Positions 16,630 through 42,100 of a stretch of 64,000 nucleotides of DNA are shown piece by piece. The DNA comes from Tubiluchus corallicola. Lineage: Eukaryota; Priapulida; Priapulimorpha; Priapulimorphida; Tubiluchidae. A program made the translations under genes and the position numbers. The notes under the pieces are model-generated. The model was not told where the DNA came from. It worked only from the letters and a program-made list of their open reading frames with translations, and ran no database searches. The stretch lies in the NCBI GenBank assembly GCA_030141605.1, contig JAQGDQ010000024.1:699501-763500 (forward strand), given 5' to 3'. Each line of letters starts with the position of its first letter. The first letter of the stretch is position 1.

Positions 16630-19600
16630 ATGGCTCATATTTTGGTGGATGAGATTTGGCTAGCATTAGGTAAATGGGGTCGCTACCAATGGACTATTGT
16701 GGTACTTCTGCTGCTGTTGAACATAGCTTGGGCTTTTCAAATGATGTCCACTCCTTTTCTTGCTGCCATGCCATCTAGCTATCACTGCACTGTTTACGGT
16801 AATTACAGTCTCAATGAAACTGTACCTTGGGTTTTTGATGATGGTCAAGCGGACCATTCACAGTGTAAAATGTATGTAGAACCTTTTGGCAACGAGACAA
16901 TGAAATGCGACAATGGCTGGAATTATCCTAAAGGCTTTCCAGGCAGCATTGTTACCCAGGTAAGACATCAGACAGATCTAAAAAGGAATTCAACATTGAA
17001 ATGCAGTAACTTAAATGTTGTGTTTCAAGATTTATAATTGTGCTTGTAAAATTTATTAAATGTATTGATTTTAAGTGATACATTTACAAGTCTGATATAT
17101 ATTAAGCGGATCTGCCAACTCTCATGCATTAGGGGTGTGTCACACATATTTTAACTCTTTCACACTTGCACACGCATCAAATTTTCATGCATTGCACAAC
17201 TTCACCCAAGTTTGCAAATCAACTGGATCCCTTTGCCGTCAGTACCATTCGTAATACTATTAGTAACACCACTATCAATAATACAATAGTGTTCATGACT
17301 CTCACAATGTATGTTAAACTAATTACAATCATTGAAAATTAAGCACTTTTTGATGCTAGTGTGTATTTTTCGTGTCCACAAAAGAACGTATTTATGTATA
17401 AAGCATGGTAATCTGCTATGACAGCATAAGAGAGCTCAGTAGTACACAAAAATTAGCTTAATTTTTTGCCTCAATTTTCTGATAATTTGATTTTGATACC
17501 CAAAAATGCAAGAATTTCTGGGGCTTAATTTGCACTCTGGGCCTTTCCCAAGGGCAAGGTGATTGTCAGGCTCTCTACTTTTCACACTCGTTTTTACATC
17601 AAATGCATGGTAGGTCTGAATAAGTTACAACAGTCACTATGTAATTGTGACATTGGTAATTTAAGCATTCTTTGAATTGTTTAACCTATTTTACATCATT
17701 TACAAGCTGTGCTGTAATAGCAGCCATAATATAAATTAGTGATTAAATCCAATATAGCAGCAGTGTAGTATCTCCATTGAGTGAAATACCTGTAATGTTT
17801 TTTACCTTATTTTCTAAAAGAATTATTTACAAAATTGCATGAACTGAATTCAGTTTAAGGTTTTAGTTATGTTCACAACTTGTCAACTTTTGTTTTAGTT
17901 TAGCCATTCCATATCATCATTTATTACTAATGTTAGTTAAGTTGGATCATATTTTTTCTTTATTTAGTGGGACTTGGTTTGTGACAATCATTATCTGGTC
18001 AGTCTCAGTACGTCAGTAATGATGATTGGTGTCATGGTGGGCAATTGGAAAATATCAGAACTATCAGATCATTTCGGTCGCAAAAAGGTAGTTGTCATTA
18101 TCCTATTAGTTACTTGAAAAATGCGATGTCTGTGATTGGTTGATAGACCATTTGTTGGTTTTCCATTATATGTAAGGCTTTTGCAATATTTTAAACTTGT
18201 GACGAGTCTAGCATAATTTATAAAGTATCTATATTAATAGTTAGATGTCAAGTCAAATGTTCTAATTAGGAAATTAAGCATTAGACATAAATGCAGGTTC
18301 TTCCAATAAGCCTTTTCACATTTCCAGCCATTAATGAAAAGGTCAAAGGTTAGGTATACCAGACACTGTATTTGTGTATGCTTGACAGTGCCTCGCAGCC
18401 CAAGCTACTGCAATAGTAACAGTTTTAACGGCTAGCTAGAACCTCACTTACTTCATTTTTTTGTTCCCAAGCACGATCCTGCTAGTAAATCACTCTACGC
18501 ACAGATTTGTGGATAATTAATTAAATGCCACGTAAAACAACTGAAGTTACCGAAATGATGCTGTAGAAGGCTTTGTTTTACACACATGTCACGTGACGGT
18601 TGTAGCTAAGATGCATTCCTATTGTACACTTAACCTTTGACCTACAGCAACTGTGCATGTGCACAATGAAACTGTGAAAATGTGTGGTAATAGGATAAAT
18701 GGTTACAGCATAGTTCTATTAAGGTAGCCTTGGCACACAAAGAGGACAGGTAGCTAGCCAGTCACTCAGTTGCCTTTCTTCTTTTAGTAAGTGGTCATAT
18801 ACTCAATTAAGGTTGAGTAGGTTGAGTAGTTCTAGAAGCGTGGCAAGAAAGTTCTAATCAAGCAGTATGTGACTAGCAAACTCTTGACATAACTGGGTTT
18901 TGAACCTTCACACCCAGATTTCTTGAATTGTCACTCAAACATTATAAGCATTCAGTCACCATGCCTTTCAATGTATTCAGCTAAAAGCTAACAGTTTTGA
19001 TAAATGAAATCAAGGTTGTATAAATTCATGTGAAGTATTTAGAAATAATCTTCTACTAGATTGTGATTTCTCTCAAATTTAATGTTTCGTTGATCAAATT
19101 ACAGCTAATTAAGCTACACAGTTGAAGATTTGAAAGTTGCGGTTGTTGTGCAGGTGTTGATCACATCGTTTGCTCTGCACATTGTCGTCGGTGTCGTCAT
19201 GGCTGTCAGCTGGAACTACTGGGTTTTCTTCAGTTTACGTTTCCTAATGGGTATCTGCATGAGTGTAAGTACATTTTCTGATTTATGTTCATTTTTGTTA
19301 ATTAACACCATTTGCTACTATTTGTTTAATACACTCACTTTGGGATAACAGTGTTTTATCCTGTCAAACATGAAGAAGCTGTTTTGTGTAATTGTCATGC
19401 TGATAAAATGTTGAAAATCTGTTGCTGTATACTGCACATATTCACGGAAGACACCTAATACTTGACATCCTTGAACTGCAACTGGTGATGCCTATATTAT
19501 GTAGTTTGTGGTGCCTCTGTGAAAAGCAGCGGGAGCTTCAAAAGCAAACCGCTAGGCAAATGATTAAGTTTAGTTTCCAGAAACAGTGAGGTTAATTGCA

Positions 19601-22600
19601 GCACATGAGTGGTTGACAACCTGCTGAGCTAGCATCATAGCACGTGTAAATGTACTTGCTTACAAACAAAATGCTACTTAACATGATTGTTTATACGTAA
19701 ATTATAGTGCCCAAAAGTGAAGTGAAGATGACATAAACACGGTTAAAGCTCTTTTGTCACAGACATAAATAATTTTGTCTTATTTTAAGCACATGGAGCA
19801 AAAATATTGAGTTAATTTCGTGAAGTTATTAGAGTCAATGTCGACACTTTTTACATACATTTGAATAGGAGCAGCTCGTACCAAGTGTTTTTGAGTCAGC
19901 TAAGTGACTGATTCAATCAATCTGAGTCTAATAAACAGCACCTACTGTATCTTGAGAATCTGATTAATCAACTCGCTGGAAATATGTGTTTATATTTGAC
20001 ATTTCCACAGAAAAGAGTTTGTGATTTCATTAAGAATTGTTACAGCATTTCTCAAACATTTCAGGGTTTTGGCATCACCGGATACGTGATGCGCAGTGAA
20101 CTTCTTCCGAAATCCGAACGCATTTATGGAACATTCACGTTTGGTGGTGCCACCTGGAATATTGGAATAGCAATACTGGCATTGTTTGCCTGGCTGGTAC
20201 CAAACTGGAGAGAGTTGCAGCTTACCCTTACCATACCTACAGTTGTTCTCCTTTCATACTGGTGGTAATTGTCATTTTGATCAGTAATTCATTACTACAT
20301 AGATAGTAAGATCAAAAAATGAGTTTTGGATGGAATAATGATAACTAAAACGGGAATTCATCCTTTCTTTTTCTCGAGTGTTTTTAGTGTAGTTTTATTG
20401 TTTTATATCTATGTAGAATGTATTTTATAATGATGTGTGCAAATTTTATGTGTAATATGTAATAAATAAATCAATTGTAAAAAAGATTGTAATTATATCT
20501 TGCCAATTATCGAAAATATATAGCCTCAGTCATTCCAATTAGATATCAGTAAAGTGTTTTACTCATCTTGTTTGCTTAACAGTTTCTTATGAAGATATTT
20601 GCAATGGTCTCCCATGAAAATATTTCTTAGTTCGATGTTTTAAGCAAGTTATTGTCTTTAGTTTTTGTATAGTTTGCACTCTGTAAGCTAGAATCCAACT
20701 GTTAATGACAAGGCTTATTTAATGTACAAGAGTAGAACCCAAACTCTTTGTCAAGAAAAATGCTTTCAGGTAAAATGTTGAACCAGGAGGGGTACTATAG
20801 TCTTTTTAACACATTCTGAAAAGTGCACATACAAGGTTTTCAGTCAAACTAATTTGTACATTGTGTCTCAAAAGTCACTATACACTTTACATTTTCTGTA
20901 TTTTTTAAGTTTGTAAGTTAGTACAGACGAACTAAAACCTTGGGCAATTCTTTTAGTCAAATTTTGGCGAAAATCTGAAAGGAGCTGTTGCACTAGTAGG
21001 CTTTGCTATTCTTTCTAGCTTGCTTTTTCAATGACTTAAGATCTTTAGCAACCAATCCAAATGGCAAGTCAGACATCTTACATTGAGAAAGTCTCTCACA
21101 GCTCATGAGTGGCCAAGAAAGGATACCCTTGTTGAAAAACTACATTGTCAATAGTGAGAGAATAGTGTGGTCTATATGATGCTTTGAATTTCCACAGAGC
21201 TTTGGCTGGTGATTGAAAGTTTATGGCAGACTTATTTTGCACTTGATTTCTAACATTACTGTCGTTACCATAGCAATAAGGTTCCATTCATAAAGTAAAC
21301 AAAATTGCAACAGGCTCCATTCATTCCTGTAAGAACTTACTGAAAATGAAGTAAAATTTAAAAAGAAAATTATAAATCAAAGTGTGTTTTTGAGACACCT
21401 GTATGTAGACAAAAAATCTAGTTCTCACATTAGACAACAAACAGCATTGAATAACATACAGTGTGGATACTTTGAAAAACATTCGTCTGTTTGTTGGTTG
21501 TTTTAGCTCTCATAACAGAGTGTCTTGTTTGCTTTGCTCGTTTATGAAGTCAATGGAAATTCCAATTCTGTATGATCTGATGGGAATGTGATTAATAGTT
21601 GTTCTTCATGCTAAGGCTTGTTTACACATATTTTAGGCTTATACCAGAGTCTCTGCATTGGCTTATGACACACGGACATGATGCTGATGCGAAGAATATA
21701 ATAGAAAAAGCAGCAAAGACAAATAAAGTGCAACTAAGTGATCAAGACATCCATAGATTGATGTACAGGACGGATTCCGTGTATAGTAATGATATGGAGC
21801 AAAAGCTTGGTGTATCTATTAATTCTGCAAAACCTGTGGAAAGTGTGGCCAACATTACTGAGGAAAAGCTGACTTTGTTAGCCGTATTTCGACATCCATA
21901 TTTACGGTGCTATTCAATTGTTCTAGGGTATTCATGGTAAGTTGAATATGCTTAATTATATATATATATATATATAATGTGTGTGTGTATGTTATTTGTG
22001 CATAATTATGTAGTAAGAGGTCATGGGAAAAACAGGATTTATGAACAAGTGCTTTCATGTGGGAATCTCAAGGTTAACAACCATAGAAGTGACAGTAAAA
22101 CACTACATTTAGCAAATTGTCAGCATTTAGTTACTGGGTGAAATGAACAAAAAAACACTAACCTTAGGCTTTGATAGAAGCCCTAAATGTTTTGTGTGAT
22201 GAATGTGATAGTGCGAATACTTTCAAAAAGTAAAAAAGTAATAATAAAAAATATTTTCTGTTGTTTGTATCATTTAATTATTAAAACTGTGATGTATATT
22301 TTGACTGTAAGATTAGATTATGTTAATCATTTACAATAGTTTTAATTAAATTTATTTGGGGGTAAGCAAAGTATTGTTATTGTACCATTTATTTTAATGT
22401 ACCAGAGTGCTACTTGCTTTGTCATTGCATAGGCTTGTGTTATTTCTTCATGCTTTGTAGTTTTTGAAATTCTGAAGTTTTACTTCATTTTTCGTTAATG
22501 TCTTGCATTTATTTTGGCAATTTTAAATATAATTACTTTAGTTAAATTAGGGGTTCTTTGCCTAATTCGACACTTCTTTTTCAAGGTTTGTCCTCTCTCT

Positions 22601-25600
22601 TGTTTACTATGGCTTAGCATTAACTATCGGGCAGCTACCTGGCAACAGCTTTCTTATCTTTGCCATGTTTGGCTTGTGCCAAATACCTGTTGATGTGGCT
22701 GCTACTTTCTTAATTAACAAGTAGGTGATATAAGGGCATAGGTTCTTGCTTATTGTGGCTTATATGGATTTTATATAAAAACCGTGCACAGTGAAACTGG
22801 CTACTAAATGATTAATGGGTAACAAGAGCGGTGTTTGTCCACCGCTAAGTAGCTCTTGCAGCGGCTGAGAACACTGCTGAGCTGTTGCATTATGTACTGG
22901 GGGTGATCATCAGGCACGCAGTAGACAATAATGCAGAATATTTTTGCATTACTAACTAAGTTTAACTTAAATTAAATAAATCACGATCCACGTCATATAA
23001 GAATAATTCATCATTTAATCCCAGTACGATTTATAAGATCATACTAACACCACATTCGTTAAAAAGCAATCTAGTTAAAAAACAGAATGCAATTAAAACC
23101 ACAATGCTTAGTTAAAATTACTTTAAAATAGAATGTAAGTTAAAGCCACGGTATCAAAATCACACCGATGTAGAATTAAAACAGTATTAAATTAAGTATA
23201 AGTGCAATCACGTTGAAGCAAAATTATTATTGCCAGACTGACCTAATGAATATTTCATTTGTCTAACACAATATGAAGCTAACTTGTTTAATACCCGGTC
23301 TGAATAGGGCAAGCCTGTTCTGAAGTCGCTTTGTAGCAAACAATAGGGCTTGCAAGCGGTTTTACGTAAAACGGTTTTCATGTAAAACCCATATTAGTGC
23401 TGTATTGGCGTCTAGTCCTATGTGCATTTCATATTTATTTTTATTTTCAAGTAATTTTGTTACTCCAGTCAAAATAGATTCATAATTGTTAATTGACCAT
23501 TTTGCTGGTAACATGAAATAATGAAGTGCAACCTGTTAAAACTGCTTGTTAATTAATTTCAAGTAATACCTGTGTCCTTTTACACTTTCTTCTCTATTGA
23601 ATTGTAATTGTATCTGTGTTATAGGTTTGTAGCTTAAGCTATAATATCGCTGCAGTTGCTAAAGTGTCTGCATTAGACACTTGTCTTGCATTATTAAGTT
23701 GGCTTGTCACCATTAATCATTATTGTCATTTATCATGTAGATAGTGTCATTGATAATTTTTAGTGAACATTTTGACCAATAGATGTCAGTCTATCACTGT
23801 TGTAGTCTAGATCTTCTTATTTACTGACACACTGATGACATTTTTAATTACAAATATTCTACTTTAGATTGGGCCGAAGAGTACCACTCTGCTTTACCAT
23901 GTGTCTTGGAGGTGTGTTACTTATGACTGCAGTTCTAATGCCAAAACTGCCTCGTAAGTATTGTTATGATTACTGGTGTAGTGTAAATGGTATTTCATTT
24001 CATTTTTTGTTTCCAGAGCACATTTCATGTTCTTTTGCACATGTGTAACAGAAAAACTTTTTTAAGGAAAATGATTTTTGATTAATTAATCATTTTAGAA
24101 AAGGAAGCAGATTTATCGTGGTTTATTACAACAATAGCGATGCTCGGGAAGATAAGCATTTCTGTTGCTTTCAACATTGTATACCTCTACACAGTAGAAG
24201 TCTTTCCAACTGTTGTAAGGTGAGTTTGCTGAAGTTTTTTTAAATGCTATAGAAATGGTGACATAGTGTGACAGTTTGAGACTGTCATGATTACTAATTA
24301 CTTCGGAAAAGTTGTAATCACATTACTCATTTTTTATTTATTTTAGCTAACCCTTTACTGATTACTGATTACTTTCGTATACTTCTGCAATACACTTAAA
24401 TCTGTCAGGTTAATTCACTCTACAGTTTTCTAGCAAGATTCAATGAAACATGGAGTTTTTAGATGTAAATAACAGTTTTTTTCCTTAGATACATGGTGCA
24501 GTGTATTATTATATTTAGTTTTTCTCCATTTACAAAATTAAAATAATGGCCATATTGCCATTAATTTTGTTAAAAGCGCCTGCTTGCTGAGCTGACAAAA
24601 AACCTGATCTTTGTCACCTGTATCGATTACAGACAACTGAATACACACAATAGCTTAACTGGATCGGGGTATTTTAGAAGTCCCTGACCTGGCCTGACTT
24701 TACTGAGCTACATTGTCCTACAGTATGTGCACTGTGCACATGACCAAGCATAAGATGCATAAAACAATCAGCTACTGTAACAGTTGTAGAAGTTCTTATC
24801 AGGCAGTCAGCCTGAATGTCAAATGAGGTCGTTATTTGAGCAAAGTAACAACCCCCCCCTGAGGAATTTGCATACAGGTGTTGCATGGCAGAGATGGACA
24901 AAAGCAAGGCCGCTAAATGATCAAAATGGCCTAAATTTAAAATGTTATTCTTGGATAGATAAATAGTGCCGATTTAGTAGTGCTACTGCCAAAGTAACGA
25001 GTAATATGTTTACAAGATTAAGCAGAGTAGTTGAGTTACATTACTCGTTACTGTAAAAAGTAATTTGATTACAGTAACCCGTTACTACCCAACACTTAGT
25101 AACAAATATTTACCTGAATACTAATATAGTTTACTGTTTGTTTCAGAAATATTGGCATAGGTTTCATGTCTCTGTGTACAAGAATTGGTGGAATACTGGC
25201 ACCTTTTGTCATTTACATGGTATGTACATTTTTGTTTTCTTTTAGTTTCTTAAAGCTAAGATGGTTTCACGTCAAATTGAAACAGATTTTCCTTGGTGTC
25301 CCTAAGAAATGTCTGAAAAACACGAGCACATTTAGGAAGTAGATTTATCAAATAAGCACTTAGCTACAATCACCCGGACCTGTTGTCTTTCCCTAAAATG
25401 CCTTATAGATGTACAATTTCAGGTAAGTTTACCAGAACACAATCTCATATAGATCATGTTGGCAGAATGTAATACAACCATTATTTTTGCCTTAACAGTC
25501 CATTGCTGGTCATGCCAGGTGTGCCTGCATGTCTGCATGTTTCAGGGTAATGCTGTCACCCCAAATTTATTACTCGCTTGCTGTGTTATTTTTTGTTTTT

Positions 25601-26564
25601 AACTGGTATCAGTTCCTAAATACTGAACAGCTGCAGAATTTTCAAGAGTGAAATAAGTAGTAAAACTAATATTTAGGTGAATTCAAATAGTCGTGAAATA
25701 TAATGGTAATATTTTGATTGTCTGTATTTTTGAGTTTGGCCCGACTATCTCAGGCAGGTTTTAAGATATGCCTTTTTTAAATAGGAGCATATTTGCACTA
25801 CGCTATTTATGCAATATATACGAAAGTAGGTTGAAATTTGAATGTGTTTTTTCACATACGTTTAATTTACTTTTTGCTCAACCGTTTTTGCTTGAATACT
25901 TTTTTAGCTTGCATTTTTGCTCAATTTTTTGATTTTGATGTTTGTTGCAAGATATAAGAAAATTGATTGATTGATTAATATTTATTCTAGCATAAAAGCC
26001 ATAAAAAGACTAAAAGCGGATTGTTTATGTTGCTGTTTGTTTATGACATCTACTTGTGTCCTGTGTATTTTTATTTATGATTTATTAACATTATATTATT
26101 TAAGAATTAAGAATTAATAGTATTTATTTATTAGTACAATATAATTTTCGTTGTGCTGAGATGTAAACAAACTCGTGTATTTTGCAGTAATCTCTAGCAG
26201 TAATTTTGCAGCAGATTATATCTCAGAATGAAAATGCACACAAGATCGTAAGTAAACAAGGTAGTGTAGAAATATATGAAAACAAACTAATAGCTTTACC
26301 ATAGAGAAGACTGTCTGTTCTTTCCTGTATGGTAATACTTTTTTTTTATTTCAGGATATTTTTGGTCGTTCTACACCTTACCTCATCTTTGGCGTTTTGA
26401 GTATAACGGCAGGCTGCCTCTGTATTGTTCTTCCAGAAACTTCTGGTGTTCATCTTAGCGATACTCTTGAACAAGTATTAAAACCTCGTGTTGATCTCAT
26501 AGGTTGCATTTGTAGAAATATAGGCAATAAAGTAAATAGAAAGATTGAGAGAAATGATTTATAA
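16630..26564 (+). CDS. SLC22-like: SLC22-type organic ion transporter, gene A (10 exons, 561 aa)
   Basis: Predicted plasma-membrane, 12-helix MFS carrier for organic ions. Coding exons: 16630-16959, 17968-18087, 19154-19264, 20065-20264, 21637-21936, 22586-22720, 23868-23953, 24099-24219, 25147-25219, 26355-26564; all introns GT-AG, lengths joining in frame to 561 residues. Residues 1-20 have the family's D-E-I-x-x-x-L-G-K-W-G-R-Y-Q start, then TM1. The extracellular loop (about 44-118) has sequons at N58, N62 and N88 and Cys 53, 79, 93 and 115, ending in TQWDLVCD. GNWKISELSDHFGRKK is MFS motif A. YWWLIPESLHWL precedes the central cytoplasmic loop. KLGRRVPL and LPETSG (about 518-523) are further family signatures. 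Arg480, in CTRIGG, matches the OAT/OCTN-type residue. Substrate is unknown; OAT- or OCTN-like use is inference. Confidence 0.9.
21957..21990. repeat. (TA)n-(TG)n microsatellite in gene A intron 5
   Basis: A compound TA then TG dinucleotide run begins about 20 bp after the exon 5 donor at 21937. It is the usual polymorphic type, with no sign of function. Confidence 0.8.
24264..25098. mobile_element. Possible hAT-like non-autonomous element in gene A intron 8
   Basis: The right end (about 24995-25098) carries repeated AGTAATTTGATTACAGTAAC and CGTTACT blocks and ends CCCAACACTT, a terminus style seen in hAT-type MITEs (AGTGTTGGG-GTAAC). The left side (24264-24370) starts TAGTGTGACAG and has ATTACTTCGG, GTAATCACATTACTCA and GATTACTGATTAC blocks in the inverse arrangement. 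There is no transposase frame. Termini and target duplication are not sharply defined. It lies wholly within the intron and should not affect the coding sequence. Confidence 0.4.
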
Positions 26565-26725
26565 TTTATTTATAGGTAATGAATAAATTTTTGATATTTT
26601 TATACTTGTACTATTAATCAATTGTTTCTGTTTTTTTTTGCTTGATTGCACTTTCATAATTAATTTTTATTTCTAAATTCCTTGAATTGATTTGACCTAA
26701 TTTTTGTGAATAGCTTATATTTTAC

Positions 26726-26731
26726 AATAAA
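26726..26731 (+). terminator. Poly(A) signal of SLC22 gene A
   Basis: AATAAA lies 162 nt after the gene A stop and is followed about 10 nt later by the GT-rich run TTAGTGTGTGTAGT, a good downstream element. A second AATAAA at 26582-26587 is only 18 nt after the stop and lacks such a run. Confidence 0.6.
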
Positions 26732-26764
26732 ATTGGAGTTAGTGTGTGTAGTATTTGCCTACTT

Positions 26765-27863
26765 ATTCGTTTATGATTACAATGTAAGTAGATTTAAGCT
26801 ATCATGCATATTATACAAAAATGCATAGTTGCAACATATACATGTTTTGAAGACTGTGTGTGTACATCCAGTACTTGCATTTTGTAATTAAAATTTGGTT
26901 TTAAAAATCTACTATACATGACTTTAAATATTAACTACATTAAATTATTAGGTTCATTTATGAAAAGAAAAACATCAGAGATAATTCTACATAAGACAGC
27001 AAAATAATTAGTTTTTCTATAGACAGTACACCTCCTGGGCTTGCTTTACATCAACGTTTTCGGTTTAAATCAGACTCAGTTCCGAATTTTCATTTTTCCT
27101 TTCTTTTCGTCAAGTTTAGTTTAGAAAATTCAATAAATCTGGCTTTCCAATGTTAACAGTGAAGAAGATACTGTCTTGGTGTTAGCTGCTTAAAAACTAA
27201 TGTAAATTAAAGAATTCAAATATTGTTAACACAGCAATATAAAACAGTCACTGTAGTTATATAGTGAATTTAATTATAAATGGCCTGGTGTCATTAATAA
27301 TGCAGTATGATGCACTGTAACTTTTTTCTCTCATAAATGTAAGTGAAAGTTTACACTAATTATGGTGAGGTTTTAGCAGCTTGAAAATTACTCTACCAAT
27401 TACAACAGATTTAGTTGTACTAAAATATTGTTATGTGGGCATCAATTGGTCCTAGAAAACGCAGACTTTGTCTTAACTACTATCTGAATCAATATTTACA
27501 GTTACCTACATTACACAGTGTATCAGATAAACCGTTTTTAGTCATTTGTGTGCTGATTTGTGCAAGCAGACATGCTTATGACCAGGATGTAAATGTCAAC
27601 AGTTTTTGGTAAGATACTTTTGCTTTATTTGTTGTGTTTTGACTAAATATTAAAATTTTTGGTCTATCATGTTCTTTAAGATTTTAACGATTTTGTATAC
27701 TCATATATGTAGTTCTTGGAACTGCCAGCTATTGACAAACTGTGAATAAAAAAGAATAAAAAAGCTAGTGCTCCAAAGTTTATATACACCTGTCATTTAA
27801 AGCTAAACTTTATCTCTGGATATCGATTAAATTTTTGGATTTTTGTTTACTTTAAAATGTACT
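26765..27863. other. Intergenic spacer between the SLC22 paralogs
   Basis: About 1.1 kb of AT-rich sequence lies between the gene A poly(A) signal and the gene B acceptor. I see no exon, repeat family or conserved promoter motif. Any gene B promoter must lie here or in gene A, unless B has a distant 5' exon. The spacing is too large for a typical trans-spliced operon. Confidence 0.6.
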
Positions 27864-27881
27864 TATTTCTATAGGTAAAAG
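27864..27881 (+). promoter_or_regulatory. Splice acceptor and 7-nt leader of SLC22 gene B
   Basis: TACTTATTTCTATAG ends at 27874, and GTAAAAG then leads directly into the ATG at 27882. The leader holds an in-frame TAA (27876-27878), so translation cannot start further upstream in frame. Acceptor position relative to the ATG differs from gene A (7 versus 40 nt), although the coding exons are the same size. Confidence 0.55.
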
Positions 27882-30800
27882 ATGTCTGAAGTTTTGGTTG
27901 ATGAGATTTGGTTGGCCCTAGGAAAATGGGGTCGCTACCAGTGGCGAGTCCTTGCACTTCTCTTGCCACTTGGCATAGTTTGGGCTTTTCAGCAAATGTC
28001 AACTCCTTTTCTTGCTGCTCTACCATCTAGTTACCATTGCACTGTTGAGGGTAACTACAGTCTAAATGAAACAATACCTTGGGTTGAAGGCAGTGATGGG
28101 TTGGCTTTAGCACAGTGTGAAATGTATGTAAATCTGTCAGCTAATGAGACAATGAAATGTGACAATGGGTGGAATTACCCAGACGATTTTGCTGGAAGCA
28201 TTATAACACAGGTAGGAAGAATATTTGTGAACATTTTTTAAAATTTTGAACAAAACCTAAAAGACAATCTTGCACATTATTTCTCCTTTTTTAAATCTTA
28301 TTTTGCCTTTACGTGTGTTTTTATTGACTACACTATATTTATTAGTATCTACTTTACGTACTGCTTATTAAATAAAAATCAAAGAGTTATGTTATTGTAT
28401 CACTATTTTATTGTGGTAGAATGAATCTATGGTAGTTAAAGTCTATTTTAGCTTTTTTGTATTGTTGCTGTTTTTACATCTATTCATTTTTTCTTTTGTT
28501 TTTCAGTGGGATCTGGTTTGCGACGATCAGTACAAGATCAGTCTCAGTGTTTCAATAATGATGGTTGGTATCATGGCTGGTAATTGGAAAGTTTCTGAAA
28601 TATCCGATCATTTCGGTCGCAAGAAGGCAAGTTTGTTTCAACATATCACATGTCGTGCACCAACAATTTGATTTTCTTCTTTAATTAGCTCTAGTTAAAC
28701 AAGTAAATTAGTTTATATTCTTCAGAAAGCTGTTACGTTTTTTGTTGTATTAATAAATTATTATTTTGATCAATATCACATGAAATTTATATCACATGCA
28801 AGTTATCGCACGAAATTGTGATTAACGAACTAAATTTTGTTTACTAAACAATCAAACCATTAAAATTTTTGTAATCGTTGTAATGTTAGTTAATAAGCAT
28901 TAATCAAATTGCAGCTAATTAAGCCCACACAGTTGAAGATTTGAAAGTTGCTGTTGTTGCGCAGGTGTTGATTGTATCTCTTGCCCTGCAAATCATCATT
29001 GGTGTCCTCATGGCTGTCAGTTGGAACTATTGGGTTTTCTTCAGTTTACGTTTTTTTATGGGAATTTGCATTAGCGTAAGTATTTTTGCACATTACAAGT
29101 TTTTCATTCAAATCATTGCAAACAGTATATGGGGATGAACCCTGCCCATTAAAAAGTAAACATATGTTGCAAATCACAAGGTGGTTTCCTTGTCACTATG
29201 TTACGACATGCAGTAAGGTCGTTTAGTTTCTACTTCTTGGCAATGAACTTAAGAAGATGAACTTGATAACAGAAAAGTAATAGATTGTTAACCACAAAGG
29301 ATTTTCAGTAACTTTTGTTACTGTTAACTGTAAAAATATAATCTGTTCTCTAATAATGCTTTAAAAAGAAACCACTTTCAGAACAAAGATGAGTATGGAG
29401 TTGATCTTGATAAGTCCTCCATTTTTTCTTAAGCATTAGCAGAATTCAGTAGTTTGTTCATTGATCAGCAATATTAGAATTAACATATATGTGTAATCTC
29501 TGTCTAACGCTGTATAGTGGACTTTCTAAACATCATGGTCTCGTAATTAATGTTATAGATCAAAAATGATTTATGAAATTATGCTTTTAGTTACTACTAC
29601 ATAATAGTACCTTAGTACTACAATAGTAACAGGGTTTAGTTTTTTGTAAGTATCAACATGATCTTAATATTTATTGGGAATGGAAGCACTCCGTAAAGTA
29701 AGGTATAAATTAATTCCCATTCACCATAGGTTAAAATGATTTATGAAATTATGCTTTTAGTTACTACTACATAATAGTACCTTAGTACTACAATAGTAAC
29801 AGGGTTTAGTTTTTTGTAGGTATTAACGTGATCTTAATATTTATTGGGAATGGAAGCACTCCGTAAAATAAGGTATAAATTAATTCCCATTCACCATAGG
29901 TTAAAATCGCTTACAAGTTAGCGTAGTCTGAAGCTTTTGCTTTACCAGGAGAAACAGTTAAATTCGTTGATTTTTGCTGCATAAGCAACCTGCTGTTGAC
30001 CATCTTGATTTTCATGTGGTATGATGTCACCTGTGTTAGACACCCGCAGCAAGTGTATTGCAAAATAAACAGCAGCTACAGTTATTACAAATGTACTAGG
30101 ATAGGTGTTCTCGCTTATCAAATTGTATATTTCGGTTACATGTTCCATTTTTACCTGTTTTTTTAGTCTAGTTATGGTGGCATATAGGTGCCACTGCTAT
30201 GTAGGTAGGGCTTATGTGCAGATATTCCAACCTGTGATGTCCCAAATAGGAAGCTTCAGCTACTGATCTGATTGAGGGAGCACTGTAAGTTCTCCCATTA
30301 GGTTTTTGCATTATAGAATTTTCAGACAGTTATAATACCAAATCTGGCAGTTGAAATTTCTTTTTCCATTAGCATTTTAGCTCTTTAAAAGGGTGCTCCC
30401 CTTTAGCAATATTTAGTCTCTAATGGTCACCCTACCGTACTGCTGTGCACAATGTAGATCTACATCAAAGTTGACTGTCTTGATTTATGACTTTATATCA
30501 TAATTATGTGGAGGTGTTGCCTTACACAGCTGTTAAAAGCAGATTCGAGTCTTCTCTGAATAATCATTATACACACTATGCAGTATTATACTTTTGCAAA
30601 ATTATTGAAATATTAAATTACAGTGCCGTAAATCATTTGTGTTCAAATGAAAACGTTTAAATTTTGCATAAATGAGATTTCATTTATTTTAATAGAAATT
30701 TTGACTCTTAGTTATGTTCAGTTGTACGAGCGGTACATGTTACCAAACAGTGTTATCAAGGCATGGTAGTGTCGAAGTTCTACACAACCCGTATTTGCAA

Positions 30801-33800
30801 AAAATAAGGGGTTTCAATAGACTGCTCATGAGATTAATACTTACCCTATAGCATGTACAATGCAGATATAAAGATAGTATTTTTTCTTGCTGATAACTTT
30901 CATAAGCTTTGCGAAGTAAATCCACATTCTGTGCAGCATTACTGATGATTCACACCAATGACGACACAATCAGCTGTGCGTACTTCAAAACTAAGATGGC
31001 GAAACACGATTTCCTTTACGATAAGTTATCTGTAGGATCAGTAGGTGGTGCTTACAATGCTTAATGAAGCTTTAAATTCAATGAAAATGGTATGCTCTTT
31101 TCACTTTCACTGTAAGAACTTTAATTTAAACCTTCCTTTCTGAAGTGCTTCTATCCCCCTTTAAAACACAACAGTTTGTTCATTAAGTGGTATGCTGTTA
31201 TGCTTGTCTATTTTAGGGTTTTGGCATATGTGGTTACATTATGCGCTGTGAACTCCTTTCCCATTCTGAGCGCATTTACGGGATATATATACTTGGTAGC
31301 ATAGTGTGGAACATTGGATTAGCTCTTTTAGCACTGCTGGCATGGCTGGTACCAAACTGGAGAAAACTGCAGCTTATACTTACTGTTCCTACAGTTGTTC
31401 TTCTTTCATATTGGTGGTAACGTAATGTTTGTTACTGACAGTAGTCCTCTCCTTTTATAAACAACTATCAAATGAATACTAGCACATATAATTAAAAAAC
31501 AAACATTTGTTGACTTGTCTTGCTGCAGTGTTATGCTTTGCTTACAAAAACACTGGTTAATATACTAAGTTTTTCACTAAGATTGTCACAAGTTGTGAAA
31601 AACTTTCACTGTTACTGCACATGAAATTATGTAGTACTTGTTTGTTTTTGCTTGTTTTTAGGCTTGTACCAGAATCTCTTCATTGGCTCATAACACATGG
31701 CTATTATACTGATGCTAAAGCTATCATTAAAAAAGCAGCAAAGGTGAATAAGGTTCAACTGAATGAGCACGATCAGGACAGATTGATGCATGGACTTGCT
31801 AGTGCTGATGGTGCTGATGGAAAGCAAAAGACTGAAACTAATAACAGTGCACTACATGTTGATCTAAGTGCCGATGCTGTAAACCCTGCAGAAAGTGTGG
31901 CCTATGCTACAGAGGAAAAGCTGACATTGCTAGATGTATTTAAACATCCTTATCTGCGATGCTACTCCCTTGTTCTAGGATATTTGTGGTAGGTTAGATA
32001 AGTGCACTATGATGCACGTGTTTGGCATTGGCTATCCTTTAAATTGCTTGTTTTAAGAAATTTTTTGTGTTATTTTTTCTGTCTGTTTCTATGGCCTCAT
32101 GTGCAGTTTTCCCTATTTTTAATTTACTATTTTCTCATTTTAGGTTTGTTGTCAATCTTGTTTACTATGGCTTGTCATTAACCATTGGGCAGCTACCTGG
32201 CAACAGCTTTCTCATCTTTGCTATGTTTGGCTTGTGCCAAATGCCTGTAGATGTGTTAACTGCTTTTCCAATTAACAGGTAGAACAACTTCTTAATGCTG
32301 CTAACAATTATTATTTGTTGAAATTTCTTATTTTCTATCTATCTCTCAAGTACTTCACCATTTTGTTGTTTAAGGAACTTGCTTCAATTGCAAACTTTGA
32401 CTTCCAACTACTAAAAGTTAACATTTTGCTGGAATTTTTTTCTTTGTGAGGTGACTTAAATGCTTTAATAGAAACTTTTTGTGTAGAGTCTTTATTTTTG
32501 TGTTGGTTTTAGAGTAGGACGACGAATTCCACTTTGTTTATCCACGTGTCTGGCTGGTGTATTGCTGCTCAGTGCTGTTCTAATACCGGAAAATACTCGT
32601 AAGTGTAGCTATCATGCATATTCTCAAGTTACTGTTTAACAGTTTTAGACAATTTAAAGCTGTCTTTTATGCAATGGATGGCTCAGTAATCTAGCAACTT
32701 TTTAGTACTTTTGTAACTTGTACTTTTTTACATTTTATATGTAATATTTATTACTTTAATTCAGTTTATTGATTTAGTAAAGTGCAAGATAATTTAACTT
32801 ATTTTACAACCTTTTTGCCATCCAGTTTAAAGTCACATGCATAAATAACATGATGTAATTGTATGTATGATTTTTACAAATCCTGATTAGTGAAACTTTT
32901 ATTTAAAAATCAAAATTTGAGAGGAAGGTGTGGCATAACATCCAACAGTGTCTTTTTTGGTTTCTGAATATTATGTTAATTTGATGCAACAAGTGCTGTT
33001 TTTAAACTTTTTTCAGAAAGTGGGATGGATATATCTTGGCTCATTACAACAGTAGTCATGCTGGGAAAAGTGAATGTATCTGTTGCCTTTAATGCCGTGT
33101 ATCTGTACACAGTAGAGGTTTTTCCTACTGTCGTAAGGTAAGTTTATAAGTCTGTAATATGAAATATTATTCATGCCTTATTTTGCTTTTCCTTAATGTC
33201 TCTCTCGTAAAGCTAAAACACTCAATGTTCTGGAATGCGAGTGCAGTGCAGTAGTCTTAGAACAGCTGAACGGAACTTTCGTACTCTAGAGATTACTCAG
33301 CAGACTTGCACACGTGATGACATGAGTGCAGTGGCCTACTCGACCATTCTCGACAAAGCTTTAGCTAACACATTTTTGCAGGAGGAATAGGTCTTAAGGT
33401 CTCTCGGAAAATTTATCATTTTTCTGAGCTTATGCAAATTGACAAAAAATTACTCCTTACTGGATGGTCTGTATAGGTTAGTGAGGCAGATAATAAGTTT
33501 CCAGCTTTTGTGACCTGGTGCATGTTATCTTAAAATGGGACTGAACGATGCAGTATAGTAATTTTAATATTTAATTTAATTTTTTACTGTATTGATAGTA
33601 TTTTGTCATCTGTATTCTTGCATTATGAAATGAAGTCAGTACAGATAATAATTTAATTTTTGTTAAAGGAAAATTTAGCTGCCTTTTGTAGAGAAAAAAT
33701 TAACGAAACGTTCTTGGCTCCTTTTTATTTCAGAAACATTGGCCTAGGATTCATGTCTTTCTGTACAGGGATTGGTGGAGTTTTAGCACCTTTCATCGTG

Positions 33801-34990
33801 TATAGGGTTTGTATGCTTTTCTTGTTTAAGATTTTTTGCTTGCTAAGGTTGTGTTAATTTTATTGTTATGAACTGCAGTTTGATTTTGTAATCATTGAAA
33901 ACTTACTTGGAAAATGTTCGTGTTTTTGCCATTGTATCAGAGATAATTTTTTATGTATACATTACCTGCTGTATTAATTCCAATATGCCTTAATATTAAT
34001 CTGTTTGACTAATACTCAATGGAAAGCATTTGTACTTAATACTAAACATTATGACAGAGCAAGAGAAGTCATGCATTTATTAACTGGCTTGACATTATGT
34101 CATTTATTTAATTACTGTTAAGGTTCCTTATGCAACAGAGCTTATATAACACTAATGCTGCATTGTGTAACTAATCACAAAAATTGTTGTAATGTTGCAA
34201 ATTTATCACCGTGTAACAAAAAATTATGCAGATTAACCTCTTTAGGGTTGCCTTCTGGCTGGGTCTTGCCACGGCCTGAATTTGCTCAAATTATTGGGCT
34301 GGTTCAGTTTTTTGTTGTTGTTGGCTAATATTTGTCTGATTGGACTACTGTATCTGTTCCCACTGTCAGTATGGTGTGCCCTATATTCACCCATGACATG
34401 TAGCAGATGAGACTAATGAAAAACCCTACATTGACTTCCTATATTAACTGACATTATTGTTACATAAGGCAGCATTTTTGTTGCTTAATGTTGTATGGCA
34501 ATATAATAACTATTTGTTACATAATGAGCCTTAACAGCTCTTCAGTAAGTGAACATTTTTTCATAATAAAAGAAAAAATACATAGCTTTACTGTTTATTG
34601 GCGTTGTTAATGTGCACACCAGTTAATAAACATACCCATCAATATGATAATGTACTTGCTTGTATACAAGTATCAGTATAATACTTGTATACAAGTATAG
34701 TAAACTGACACAAAAAAGAGTTAAGATTGCAAAGAATAGATCAATTAAAATTACACACTTACACAACCAAGGCTTAGTAGAACCTTCATTTGTTTTAGGA
34801 TGGGCAGTCTACACCATACATCATCTTTGCCTTCTTGGCTATCACCTCTGGTATATTCTGCATTATCCTTCCAGAAACGTCAGGTGTTAATCTTGGGGAT
34901 ACGCTTGATCAAGTCCTGAAACCTCATGTGGATATTACCTGTTGCAAATGCACACGTATAGGCAAACAAGGTAGAAAAGTAGAGAAATAG
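27882..34990 (+). CDS. SLC22-like: SLC22-type organic ion transporter, gene B (10 exons, 564 aa)
   Basis: Tandem paralog of gene A with the same predicted fold and membrane location. Coding exons: 27882-28211, 28507-28626, 28965-29075, 31217-31416, 31662-31988, 32144-32278, 32513-32598, 33017-33137, 33734-33806, 34799-34990. Eight of the ten exons equal gene A in length, and all intron phases match. Intron 2 has a GC donor (AAG|GCAAGT); the others are GT-AG. Motifs: LVDEIWLALGKWGRYQW start, sequons at N58, N62 and N88 plus one near N84, TQWDLVCDD, GNWKVSEISDHFGRKK, LVPESLHWL, RVGRRIPL and LPETSG. By my count exon 2 keeps 29 of 40 residues and exon 6 keeps 36 of 44 compared with A. The cytoplasmic loop has nine extra residues. 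Gly489 (CTGIGG) replaces gene A's Arg480. Substrate is unknown. Confidence 0.9.
29563..29902. repeat. 170-bp tandem duplication in gene B intron 3
   Basis: Copy 1 is 29563-29732 and copy 2 is 29733-29902. By eye they differ at four positions, all transitions. Each unit begins AAAATGATTTATGAAATTATG and ends CACCATAGGTT. The near-identity implies a recent local duplication. No transposon ends or target duplications are visible. Intron 3 of gene B (2.1 kb) is longer than that of gene A (0.8 kb), partly because of this. Confidence 0.9.
34659..34698. repeat. Repeated CTTGTATACAAG palindrome in gene B intron 9
   Basis: The 12-bp palindrome CTTGTATACAAG occurs at 34659-34670 and 34684-34695. The second copy sits in the 18-bp perfect palindrome ATACTTGTATACAAGTAT. 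They lie about 100 bp before the acceptor of the last gene B exon. The function is unknown; they may be a small inverted-repeat relic. Confidence 0.7.
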
Positions 34991-38583: not shown

Positions 38584-39146
38584 TTAACTGAGACCATTTG
38601 TTGCTGGAATGGGGTTGTTACCGGAACATGCTAGATTGTGTGACAGTGATGAGGTAGGGGTGTATTCTTTCACAAGCTTACTTTGCTTATTTTCCATTTC
38701 ACCATTTTGCACATTCCTCACGTGAGATTCCAGCTTACAGTGAAACTCGTACTCCTGCTGTGTTGAGTAGGTGTCATTACAAACCTCGCACTTGTAATGA
38801 CTTTGCACAAGTGTCAGAATGTTGCTCCTGTCATTCGGGGCTTGTCCCGGAAAGCAAACTGACATCTGGTGGTTGTTGCACAAATGTTCGGTAGGAAAAA
38901 CTAGGTGGCATTTTTTACACACGAAACCCACCTCTGTTTCATGATGAACGGTGACGTCACAATCGCGCTCCGGGATCACCCGACGCAGGTCAGAAATTGA
39001 ACGGCCGTCTTGAGTGAAGCGTGCTGTATGTGCTGTGCCCCCGGCCAATTTGTTGCCTATATCCTGAAGTGCAGAAGCAGGTATTTGCAGCATGTTTAAT
39101 GGCGTCCCATATGTCAACGGATCATAAGCTAACAGTCCCCCTGTAC
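38584..39146 (-). CDS. ZFHX: Last coding exon of a ZFHX3/ZFHX4/zfh2-type zinc-finger homeobox gene (partial)
   Basis: This is the 3' coding exon of a large nuclear transcription factor. The minus-strand acceptor TTGCTTTGTTTCAG ends at 39147. The exon opens in phase 1 and runs 186 full codons to a stop at 38584. The segment begins with LLAYDPLTYGTPLNMLQIPA, which I recall as characteristic of invertebrate zfh2-like C-termini. TQDGRSISDLRR follows. Then come two atypical fingers: VGFVCKKCHLVFPTEHLCNN-H...C (the counterpart of the human ZFHX3 C-terminal KLVCRKCQAGF finger, with CFPGQ matching CFFGQ) and HYKCEVCNDTYSTQQEYEFH-C-x3-SH (the counterpart of YHCLACESAL...LESALH). The Ser-rich tail is short. 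Homeodomain exons must lie at higher coordinates, and I did not find them in the window. It is convergent with SLC22 gene B. Confidence 0.8.
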
Positions 39147-42100
39147 CTGAAACAAAGCAACACATCATGAATTCCAACTGAATTACAAAGAAAATTTTTT
39201 GCAGAGTTTTCACACAGTTTGGTCAAAAAGACTCAATGAACTTTTATAATGGAAAACCAACGCGTATTTCTGATAACAAAGTACTGATACTTCTGTTGAA
39301 AAAAGATCCAGTTTTAGTGCAAAATCAGAAGAGAAAATGGTCCTATTTTGGGGAAATCTTCAAAAACCTGCAACTGACTGCATGATATCAGATGGATGCG
39401 ATCAATTTTTTTTTGAAAACCTTCAAAAACCAAGTTTTGTATTTTAAGCACTGATTACAGGATGCCTAATAGAATTATGTACTTATGTACTAGAGTAGCC
39501 TCAATAGACCTACAAAACAGCATCCAACAGGATAAATCATTGCTATTGCTATACTATTTAATAAATAACAAAAAATATTGTTTATGCTGCCTGTCGTTAA
39601 GCTCAAAGGCTTGGAACAACGTCGAAGCAGACCTAGCTTAGCACAGCCACACTACTTATACCTTGGAGGAACCCATATTCCACTGATGATCACAAAATTA
39701 TGAAGAAGAATTATGCATAGCCACCATAATTACTCATTATTTTTTATGCTTGCAATCTTTGGAAAACAACTTATTTATTGAGTATAGAAATTGCACAAAT
39801 TCTCAAAGTAGTGCATGGTAATGACGCAGAACAATCTTCTACTTTATCATGATTAGCAAACACAGTTCAACACATGGCAGTCTACACATAAAAGATTAGT
39901 AGTTAAGCATTTTCCTTTTCATTTCATACTCAAACTGTGGAATAAAAACCCATGTTGTGGAATAAAAGTGTATTACACTACATTTTAAAATACATTCACA
40001 TTAAAATCTTTAAGCAAAATTCAAACAAAATACTCTTTTGTAAGAAGAAACATTTCAGTGCTGCACTGCACATCAATATACACAACTATTCACTGACAGT
40101 TTGTCTGCAGAAGTATACTTTGCATAAGCAAATTTTCTTAACACATTATGCTGGCATTGAGACATCATTATGCAAAAGCTACCCATTACTTCCCACCTCT
40201 AATGGCTGCGGCTTCATGCCACTGTCCCACCGACTTTCAAACACTTCCACATTGCAGGCATTATGTATTACAAATTCTTATCAATAATCTATTATCATAC
40301 TGAGCTCCCGCCTTTAGGAACACCCAGTGTTACGTAACCATGACAATTGAACCATTTATCGCCTGCACACATTACTTGCTAGGCACATGCTGCCACCTTT
40401 CGGTTAGGAATAAAACTGCAACACTTGATTTTGTTTGCTTAAAATCTGCTGAATACATAACTTAACATGACATTACAGCCTTGTAAAGCTATAGGCTGAT
40501 TTACATGGGCTCATTTTACGTAATTACGGGCGGAAAGAGTTAACACAGTAAAATGGAGATGTTTGAATATGTGGTGGTGAATTTCATTTAAAAGGAAAAA
40601 ATCTGCATGCATATTAATAGACGATGTTTGGACGGCAAACGAACAGAGACGCCATTTTATCGCGTTGAATTATTTCAATTGACTGTCATTGAACGCATGA
40701 TCGCTTGACACTCAAGCAAATTTACACAACTCACAAAAGAAATTTATAATGCAGTTAAATGCACATACCATGCTGTCTTTGACTTGTGAGGTTCAATAAC
40801 TTTGAATTAAATCAGGTATACAAGCCTACCGAGTTCTAGGCCTAAAAGCCATTGGATAGAGAATTTAACTAAGCTTCATCAAAAACGCAAGGCTTCCCTA
40901 TTCTTAAGTGTTTAGAGAAGTTTATTCGAGAGAAGTTAAAAATAAGAGTGTAATAAAAAGAAGAACTAGAAAAAGTACAAATAGTCGATGGTGCCTCTAT
41001 TGCTTTATAATAATCTTTTATTTATGAAGAAAAGTACGAAATGTTATTCTGGATAGCCACAGTGTAATTAGCGGCAGCTGAATTTGTCCTTTAAAAACTC
41101 CTTGGTCAGATTGTTTAATTCAAATGTAGGTACGTGAAACACTCAACCAGAATGAAATACTGTGCGAGAATGAGCTAATGAAGCCAGGTAAATCAACTGA
41201 ATATCCATTTACCACAAGTATGTTGTGATTTAGTCGCTTGCAAACAAGTACCACGTGTTTTGTTTTGACCTTTCCAAGGCCGCGGTGCACGTGGATGCGA
41301 CTGGCGCGCGACGGAGGCCGGAAGGATCTTGAAATGACCCACGCTAAACTGCAAGTCATATACGGTGCGACAATCTTTTCCTGTAAATGCATGTATCTAT
41401 TATTCATGGAACGAGAAAGACACAGGATAATAAAATCCACAACGAATCATTGTTCTATGTATGCATTCTCAGCGTATTGATTTCAGACGGTGAATTTTTA
41501 CCCTGCAAATAAGGCATGGCACTAATGAAAAGCTCGACTAATAACAGCAGCAGCCAGTATACGCAATTCTGCTTAATCAGTTCTACGGCACTAATTGCAA
41601 TCTGTCGCATCCACTTGCAGCTGGGGGGTGGGCTGGGCAGTGGTGAGAGGAGAACACGGGACAGCGGTGCCAAAATACATGTATGCCAAATATAAAAAAA
41701 TATGCGCGCCTAAATACTGAGCAAAAATAATGCGTAATAACCATGACAGTTCTAAACTGATTCCTAGGAAGACGCAAGGCGCCACAACGTTTTGCTGTGC
41801 AGTATGTGGCATTGTAATCAGTATACAAACATAGAAGTGAACAAATAAAAAATCAACTGCTCTGTATATTAATATTGTTGTAAACACAAAGACAGTCAGA
41901 TTTCTTACAGATACATAACATTTGTCGGTCAAATTTTGTCATCCAACAAGAATCACAGTCGCTTGAAAAGGTTGCTCACAATTTTCTAAGCATTTCGATG
42001 ATGCCGACGCTAGATTGCAGGACGAATTTCAGTGCATCTGTGATTCTGCATCTTAATTCATTACGTTTGTAACAGCAAAAAAGACTCTAATTCTTTACTT

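What the first reader, a model, noticed from the sequence alone, without database searches (positions are those of the whole stretch)
25147..33806. SLC22 paralogs differ at the TM11 charge-selectivity residue (Arg480 in A, Gly489 in B)
Aligned by eye, gene A reads NIGIGFMSLCTRIGGILAPF and gene B NIGLGFMSFCTGIGGVLAPF. The human OCT1 counterpart, recalled from memory, has Asp at the twelfth position (Asp475 in rat OCT1); OATs and OCTNs have Arg there (for example OAT1 Arg466). Gene A is therefore OAT/OCTN-like at this site. Gene B has lost the charge through a codon change from AGA to GGG. This suggests altered substrate charge preference after duplication.
Basis: partly seen in the sequence, partly recalled or inferred. 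Interest (0 to 1): 0.6.

Follow-up and report, generated by a model that had tools for sequence, protein, structure and literature searches.

The report
Tandem SLC22 transporters differing at TM11
Two neighbouring copies of an animal drug/metabolite transporter gene differ at a residue that in human relatives contacts the substrate: one keeps the usual arginine and the other has a glycine, a real but modest difference whose effect on transport has not been tested.

Summary
The window holds two intact 10-exon SLC22 genes in tandem: A (16630-26564, 561 aa) and B (27882-34990, 564 aa). They share nine intron phases, are 70% identical, and have dN/dS about 0.23. Arg480 (AGA, 25181-25183) and Gly489 (GGG, 33768-33770) fall in a gap-free column with OCTN2 Arg471, OAT1 Arg466 and OCT Asp474/475. 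B's Gly is derived: Arg occurs in 28 of 37 TM11 exons found in this genome, and in 18 of the 19 genes sharing A/B's TM10/TM11 intron. Asp was found in none.

Arg is the family default, so it does not mark A as an anion transporter. A, B and one close paralog also carry unusual TM8 residues: Gln where OCT Glu386/OAT Asp378 sits, and Asp where OAT1 Lys382 sits. Counting five literature-named pocket positions, A resembles OCTN2 and B resembles OCTs in net charge, so a shift away from carboxylates is plausible. Neutral substitutions at this Arg abolish or impair OAT1, URAT1 and OCTN2, so loss of transport is a real rival. Other TM11 exons here have lost the Arg too. An ordinary duplicate pair with one testable substitution; no model or uptake test could be run.

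The parts
16630..26564 (+). Gene A, SLC22-type transporter, 10 exons (16630-16959, 17968-18087, 19154-19264, 20065-20264, 21637-21936, 22586-22720, 23868-23953, 24099-24219, 25147-25219, 26355-26564), 561 aa
   Evidence: exons re-found by spliced DP with B as query; PDB hit OCTN2 E=1e-71; Pfam MFS_1 / Sugar_tr
27882..34990 (+). Gene B, tandem paralog, 10 exons (27882-28211, 28507-28626, 28965-29075, 31217-31416, 31662-31988, 32144-32278, 32513-32598, 33017-33137, 33734-33806, 34799-34990), 564 aa; intron 2 has a GC donor
   Evidence: PDB hits OCT3 2.7e-70 and OCTN2 1.1e-69
25147..25219 (+). Gene A exon 9 (TM11), NIGIGFMSLCTRIGGILAPFVIYM
25181..25183 (+). Arg480 codon AGA of gene A; column of OCTN2 R471, OAT1 R466, OCT D474/475
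33734..33806 (+). Gene B exon 9 (TM11), NIGLGFMSFCTGIGGVLAPFIVYR
33768..33770 (+). Gly489 codon GGG of gene B, same column
22586..22720 (+). Gene A exon 6 (TM7-TM8), with Gln386 and Asp390 at the OCT Glu386/OAT1 Asp378 and OAT1 Lys382 columns
32144..32278 (+). Gene B exon 6 (TM7-TM8), with Gln395 and Asp399 at the same columns

Best explanation
A and B are an old tandem duplicate pair of an animal SLC22 transporter (12-TM MFS fold, large first extracellular loop). Arg at the middle of TM11 is ancestral, and B replaced it with Gly after the duplication while staying under purifying selection. Shown by sequence: the gene anatomy, the column homology, the derived state of Gly, and the shared TM8 Gln/Asp pair. 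Inferred: in A, Arg480 does what OCTN2 Arg471, OAT1 Arg466 and URAT1 Arg477 do, namely coordinate an anionic group and staple TM11 during occlusion. In B that contact is gone while the TM8 Asp399 remains, so the pocket is about one charge more negative. B therefore most likely handles neutral or cationic solutes, or has weak polyspecific uptake, and not carboxylates or zwitterions.
For: Arg480/Gly489 align with R471/R466/D474-475 in gap-free TM11 blocks. Arg is the default in the genome: of 37 TM11 exons, 28 have Arg, 4 Ser, 2 Ala, 2 Asn and 1 Gly (B) (plus A and B). Among the 19 genes whose TM10/TM11 junction is split by an intron, B is the only one without Arg. In the tree, {A,B,C2144} and its starred sister group all have Arg except B. 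dN/dS is 0.23 with dS about 0.88, with no stop or frameshift in 564 codons. Five pocket positions (OCT1 K214, E386, OAT1 K382, K431, R466 columns) sum to OAT1 +2, OCTN2 +1, A +1, B 0 and OCTs 0 (residues; the sum is mine). R471 bonds the carnitine carboxylate (PMC12780140), and R477 the negatively charged oxygen of urate (PMC11811179).
Against: Neutral substitutions at this Arg (OAT1 R466A; URAT1 R477S/H; OCTN2 R471A/C/H/P) mostly cause loss of function, not a switch. Other pocket positions differ between A and B too. In OCT1 the Asp474 is paired with Lys214 and did not touch bound substrates in the inward-open structures (PMC10567722), so this column alone does not set charge preference.
Confidence: 0.5

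Rival explanations
1. B has lost ordinary transport: without the TM11 Arg the substrate-driven occlusion fails, and B is kept for another role (binding, inhibition, partner protein) or is weakly active.
For: OAT1 R466A and R466K non-functional (PMC10643130); OCTN2 R471A gave no measurable current and R471C about 15% activity (PMC12780140); URAT1 R477S/H occur in renal hypouricaemia (PMC11811179).
Against: Pairwise dN/dS 0.23 and intact exon structure across all 12 TM regions. TM10 Phe/Tyr, the TM7 Tyr pair, TM10 Lys, the gating Glu/Arg and the TM11 Gly/Pro hinge are all kept in B. OCTs transport well without this Arg. The mutants named are single changes in proteins adapted to the Arg.
Confidence: 0.25
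2. The residue matters little for charge preference in this clade: substrate selectivity of A and B is set elsewhere (TM8 Gln/Asp, TM4 Arg197, aromatic cage), and R480G is near-neutral divergence.
For: A, B and C2144 share TM8 Q...D and a TM4 Arg not seen in the other rows, including the OCT, OCTN2 and OAT1 references. The column has changed to Ser, Ala or Asn in other genes of this genome. A/B differ at 30% of aligned codons.
Against: The column is Arg in all 18 other genes of the intron-sharing set, and R480G is one of only three near-invariant columns lost in B alone.
Confidence: 0.22
3. The Gly codon is an assembly or sequencing error, or B is a decaying pseudogene.
For: No reads or transcripts were available to check; B intron 2 uses a GC donor.
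Against: Two bases differ (AGA/GGG); only one locus matches each exon 9; all exons are intact with standard junctions (GC-AG with AAG|GCAAGT is a known functional class); dN/dS 0.23 at dS 0.88.
Confidence: 0.03

Closest known systems
OCTN2 (SLC22A5), PDB 9pdq
   Same: Best structural hit of A (1e-71). Arg in the TM11 column; TM10 Phe443/Tyr447 and TM7 Tyr358 equivalents kept; TM11 Ser467, Gly473 and Pro478 equivalents kept
   Different: Na+-site residues S28/N32/N210 are Leu/Trp/Phe in A and B, and Q207/Y211 are not kept; TM8 Glu is Gln; B lacks the Arg
OCT1-3 (SLC22A1-3), PDB 7zh0, 8et9, 8sc1
   Same: OCT3 is B's best hit (2.7e-70). B resembles OCTs in having no positive charge at the TM11 site and in having Arg 12 residues further on (the OCT1 R486 column, by the peptides shown)
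   Different: OCTs have Asp at the site and Lys214 in TM4; B has Gly and Ser187. OCT Glu386 is Gln in A and B
OAT1/OAT3/URAT1 (SLC22A6/A8/A12), PDB 8bvr
   Same: A has the TM11 Arg and TM10 Lys431 of OAT1
   Different: OAT1 Lys382 in TM8 is Asp in A and B, Asp378 is Gln, and Tyr230 is Trp

Membership tests
SLC22 family (MFS) | Full-length homology to solved SLC22 transporters, large Cys-containing first extracellular loop, motif A, PES central motif, C-terminal PET motif | tested here: met
   D...GRK motif, PESLHWL and LPETSG in both proteins
OAT subgroup | Lys in TM8 (OAT1 K382) together with Arg in TM11 (R466) | tested here: not met
   A has Asp390 + Arg480, B has Asp399 + Gly489; the Lys/Arg pair is from PMC10643130 and the Feng 2001 title cited in PMC5054527
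OCT subgroup | Asp in TM11 (D474/475), Lys214 in TM4, Glu386 in TM8 | tested here: not met
   A: Arg480, Ser187, Gln386; B: Gly489, Ser187, Gln395
OCTN subgroup | PNGFxG in TM1 and Na+-site residues S28/N32/N210, TM11 Arg | tested here: not met
   Na+-site residues differ in both; A keeps the TM11 Arg only
OAT / OCT / OCTN subgroup | Phylogenetic placement within a vertebrate subgroup | tested here: not met
   A and B group with paralogs of their own genome, apart from OCTN2, OCT2/3 and OAT1; only four reference proteins, midpoint root, OAT1 branch long
Any SLC22 subgroup | Measured substrate charge preference | not testable with these tools
   needs uptake assays

The most novel reading that the evidence does not exclude
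B is a naturally evolved charge-switched SLC22 whose acidic pocket residue sits on TM8 (Asp399) and not on TM11 as in OCTs, giving an independent route to cation transport. The pair would be a one-residue natural experiment on charge selectivity.
Probability: 0.2. Interest if true: 0.5.

Novelty: new member of a known kind. Interest (0 to 1): 0.25.

Why it matters
The TM11 Arg/Asp column is a recognised determinant in SLC22 drug and metabolite transporters, and in human OCTN2 and URAT1 its loss causes disease. A natural paralog that has tolerated an Arg-to-Gly change under purifying selection shows that the position can be vacated, and it offers a simple test of what compensates. Otherwise the pair is ordinary duplicate divergence in a large SLC22 family.

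Tried and rejected
Faster evolution of B was suggested by tree branch lengths (0.30 versus 0.097), but pairwise relative-rate counts against 16 outgroups were not consistent (one nominal p=0.049, in the opposite direction), so I do not claim it. The Pfam Sugar_tr genome search returned only long uninterrupted frames, mostly on one contig that looks bacterial, and missed the SLC22 genes; protein queries worked. Searches for sponge/invertebrate SLC22 papers gave only PMC4633038 as relevant, which covers fly, worm, sea urchin and Ciona; a text search of it found no mention of TM11. The host species was not identified.

Full report
WHAT IS THERE. Gene A (16630-26564) and gene B (27882-34990) are two complete tandem genes of ten exons each, on the + strand, with identical intron phases (0,0,0,2,2,2,1,2,0) but unrelated intron lengths. 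All junctions are GT-AG except B intron 2, which is GC-AG with the consensus AAG|GCAAGT. The proteins are 561 and 564 aa and 70% identical over 555 aligned codons. Using B as query, a spliced dynamic-programming alignment recovered the ten exons of A without manual input. Both match solved SLC22 transporters over their length: OCTN2, OCT3, OCT2, OAT1 and URAT1. Both also match Pfam MFS_1 and Sugar_tr.

THE RESIDUE. A has Arg480 (AGA, 25181-25183) and B has Gly489 (GGG, 33768-33770), exactly as reported. HMMER alignments to OCTN2, OCT3, OCT2 and OAT1 have no gap in TM11. The reference numbering checks out: the residues I expected at OCTN2 28, 32, 207, 211, 358, 443, 447, 467, 471 and at OAT1 35, 230, 353, 354, 378, 382, 431, 438, 462, 466 are all present. 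The column is OCTN2 R471, OAT1 R466 and OCT D474/475. Published work ties it to function. R471 salt-bridges carnitine's carboxylate, and R471A gives no measurable current (PMC12780140). R466 binds the regulatory chloride, and neither Ala nor Lys works (PMC10643130). R477 of URAT1 contacts urate, and R477S/H occur in renal hypouricaemia (PMC11811179). In OCT1, D474 pairs with K214, is conserved only in OCTs, and is Arg in most OATs and OCTNs (PMC10567722).

DERIVED STATE. Searches of the window's own genome (343.5 Mb) with B, and with the TM10-TM12 part of A, found a large SLC22-like family. I fetched these loci and read the column with a profile. One search tallied 34 TM11 exons: Arg 26, Ser 4, Ala 2, Asn 2. 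Adding C2144 (Arg, read), A (Arg) and B (Gly) gives 28 Arg in 37; no Asp and no Lys was seen. In A, B and 17 other genes an intron splits TM10 from TM11 right after the ...PTVVR motif; 18 of these 19 have Arg and only B does not. The other non-Arg exons carry TM10 and TM11 together, so B's loss looks independent. Two of the loci (C1247 and C1570) are near-identical in this exon and may be one gene counted twice. Counts are lower bounds and lean towards A-like sequences. A tree of 18 rows places C2144 as sister to A+B, and five further paralogs (C1389, C1839, C1247b, C796a, C2137) as the next group, all with Arg.

THE REST OF THE POCKET. In both A and B the acidic TM8 residue (OCT E386, OAT1 D378; acidic in all other rows except C2144) is Gln, and the OAT1 K382 position is Asp. 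C2144 shares both, so this is a clade feature older than the duplication. TM10 Lys, Phe and Tyr, TM7 Tyr-Tyr, the intracellular gate Glu/Arg pair, and the TM11 Ser, Gly and Pro are kept in both. A/B differences at or next to pocket positions, besides R480G, are M38Q, G215S, S358N, I222L, A393T and L477F. B also has Arg501 where A has Met492, at the OCT1 R486 position by the aligned peptides; this depends on the exon 9 donor placed by homology to A. Summing formal charge over the K214, E386, K382, K431 and R466 columns gives OAT1 +2, OCTN2 +1, A +1, B 0, OCT2/OCT3 0. This is a hand count over five chosen positions, not an electrostatic calculation, and it leaves out the TM4 Arg197 shared by A and B.

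SELECTION. Nei-Gojobori dN/dS between A and B is 0.227 (dN 0.20, dS 0.88), so at least over most of their history both were constrained. Relative-rate counts against 16 outgroups do not show that B evolves faster. Of 76 columns at least 80% uniform in the other rows, B alone departs at three (V108I, R480G, G505A by A numbering), A alone at one (D336A), and both together at nine, including the TM8 Glu to Gln change. R480G is thus unusual but not isolated.

JUDGEMENT. The most likely reading is a pocket in B that has lost carboxylate recognition and leans to neutral or cationic solutes. Loss of transport and near-neutral drift are live rivals. No structure model could be made.

Noticed in passing
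L005 + L040 (G000:C1024:583000-594200, minus strand): One SLC22-like gene region has three TM10-TM11 exons in a row (C1024:588947-589126, 587600-587788, 585962-586138) between a single TM9 exon and a single TM12 exon, with matching splice phases. They look like mutually exclusive exons that would swap TM10-TM11, and carry Ser, Ala and Ser at the OAT1 R466 column.
   Followed up: partly
window 29563-29902: Tandem 170-bp duplication, 98% identical, inside intron 3 of gene B.
   Followed up: no
window 22586-22720 and 32144-32278; L001: A, B and C2144 share Gln at the otherwise acidic TM8 position, Asp at the OAT1 K382 position, and an Arg in TM4 (A197/B197); arguably a more unusual pocket feature than the TM11 difference.
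   Followed up: partly
L023, L024, L026 (C1743, C757, C2286:117600-120000): Three genes without the TM11 Arg have a Lys further along, directly after the TM11 Pro (TPK/APK), a possible displaced positive charge.
   Followed up: no
window 6115-8691 (-) and 38584-39222 (-): Long frames with C2H2 zinc-finger-like spacing, only weak sub-threshold Pfam matches.
   Followed up: partly
G000 contig C1761: Uninterrupted sugar-transporter frames on this contig look bacterial, suggesting symbiont or contaminant DNA in the assembly.
   Followed up: no
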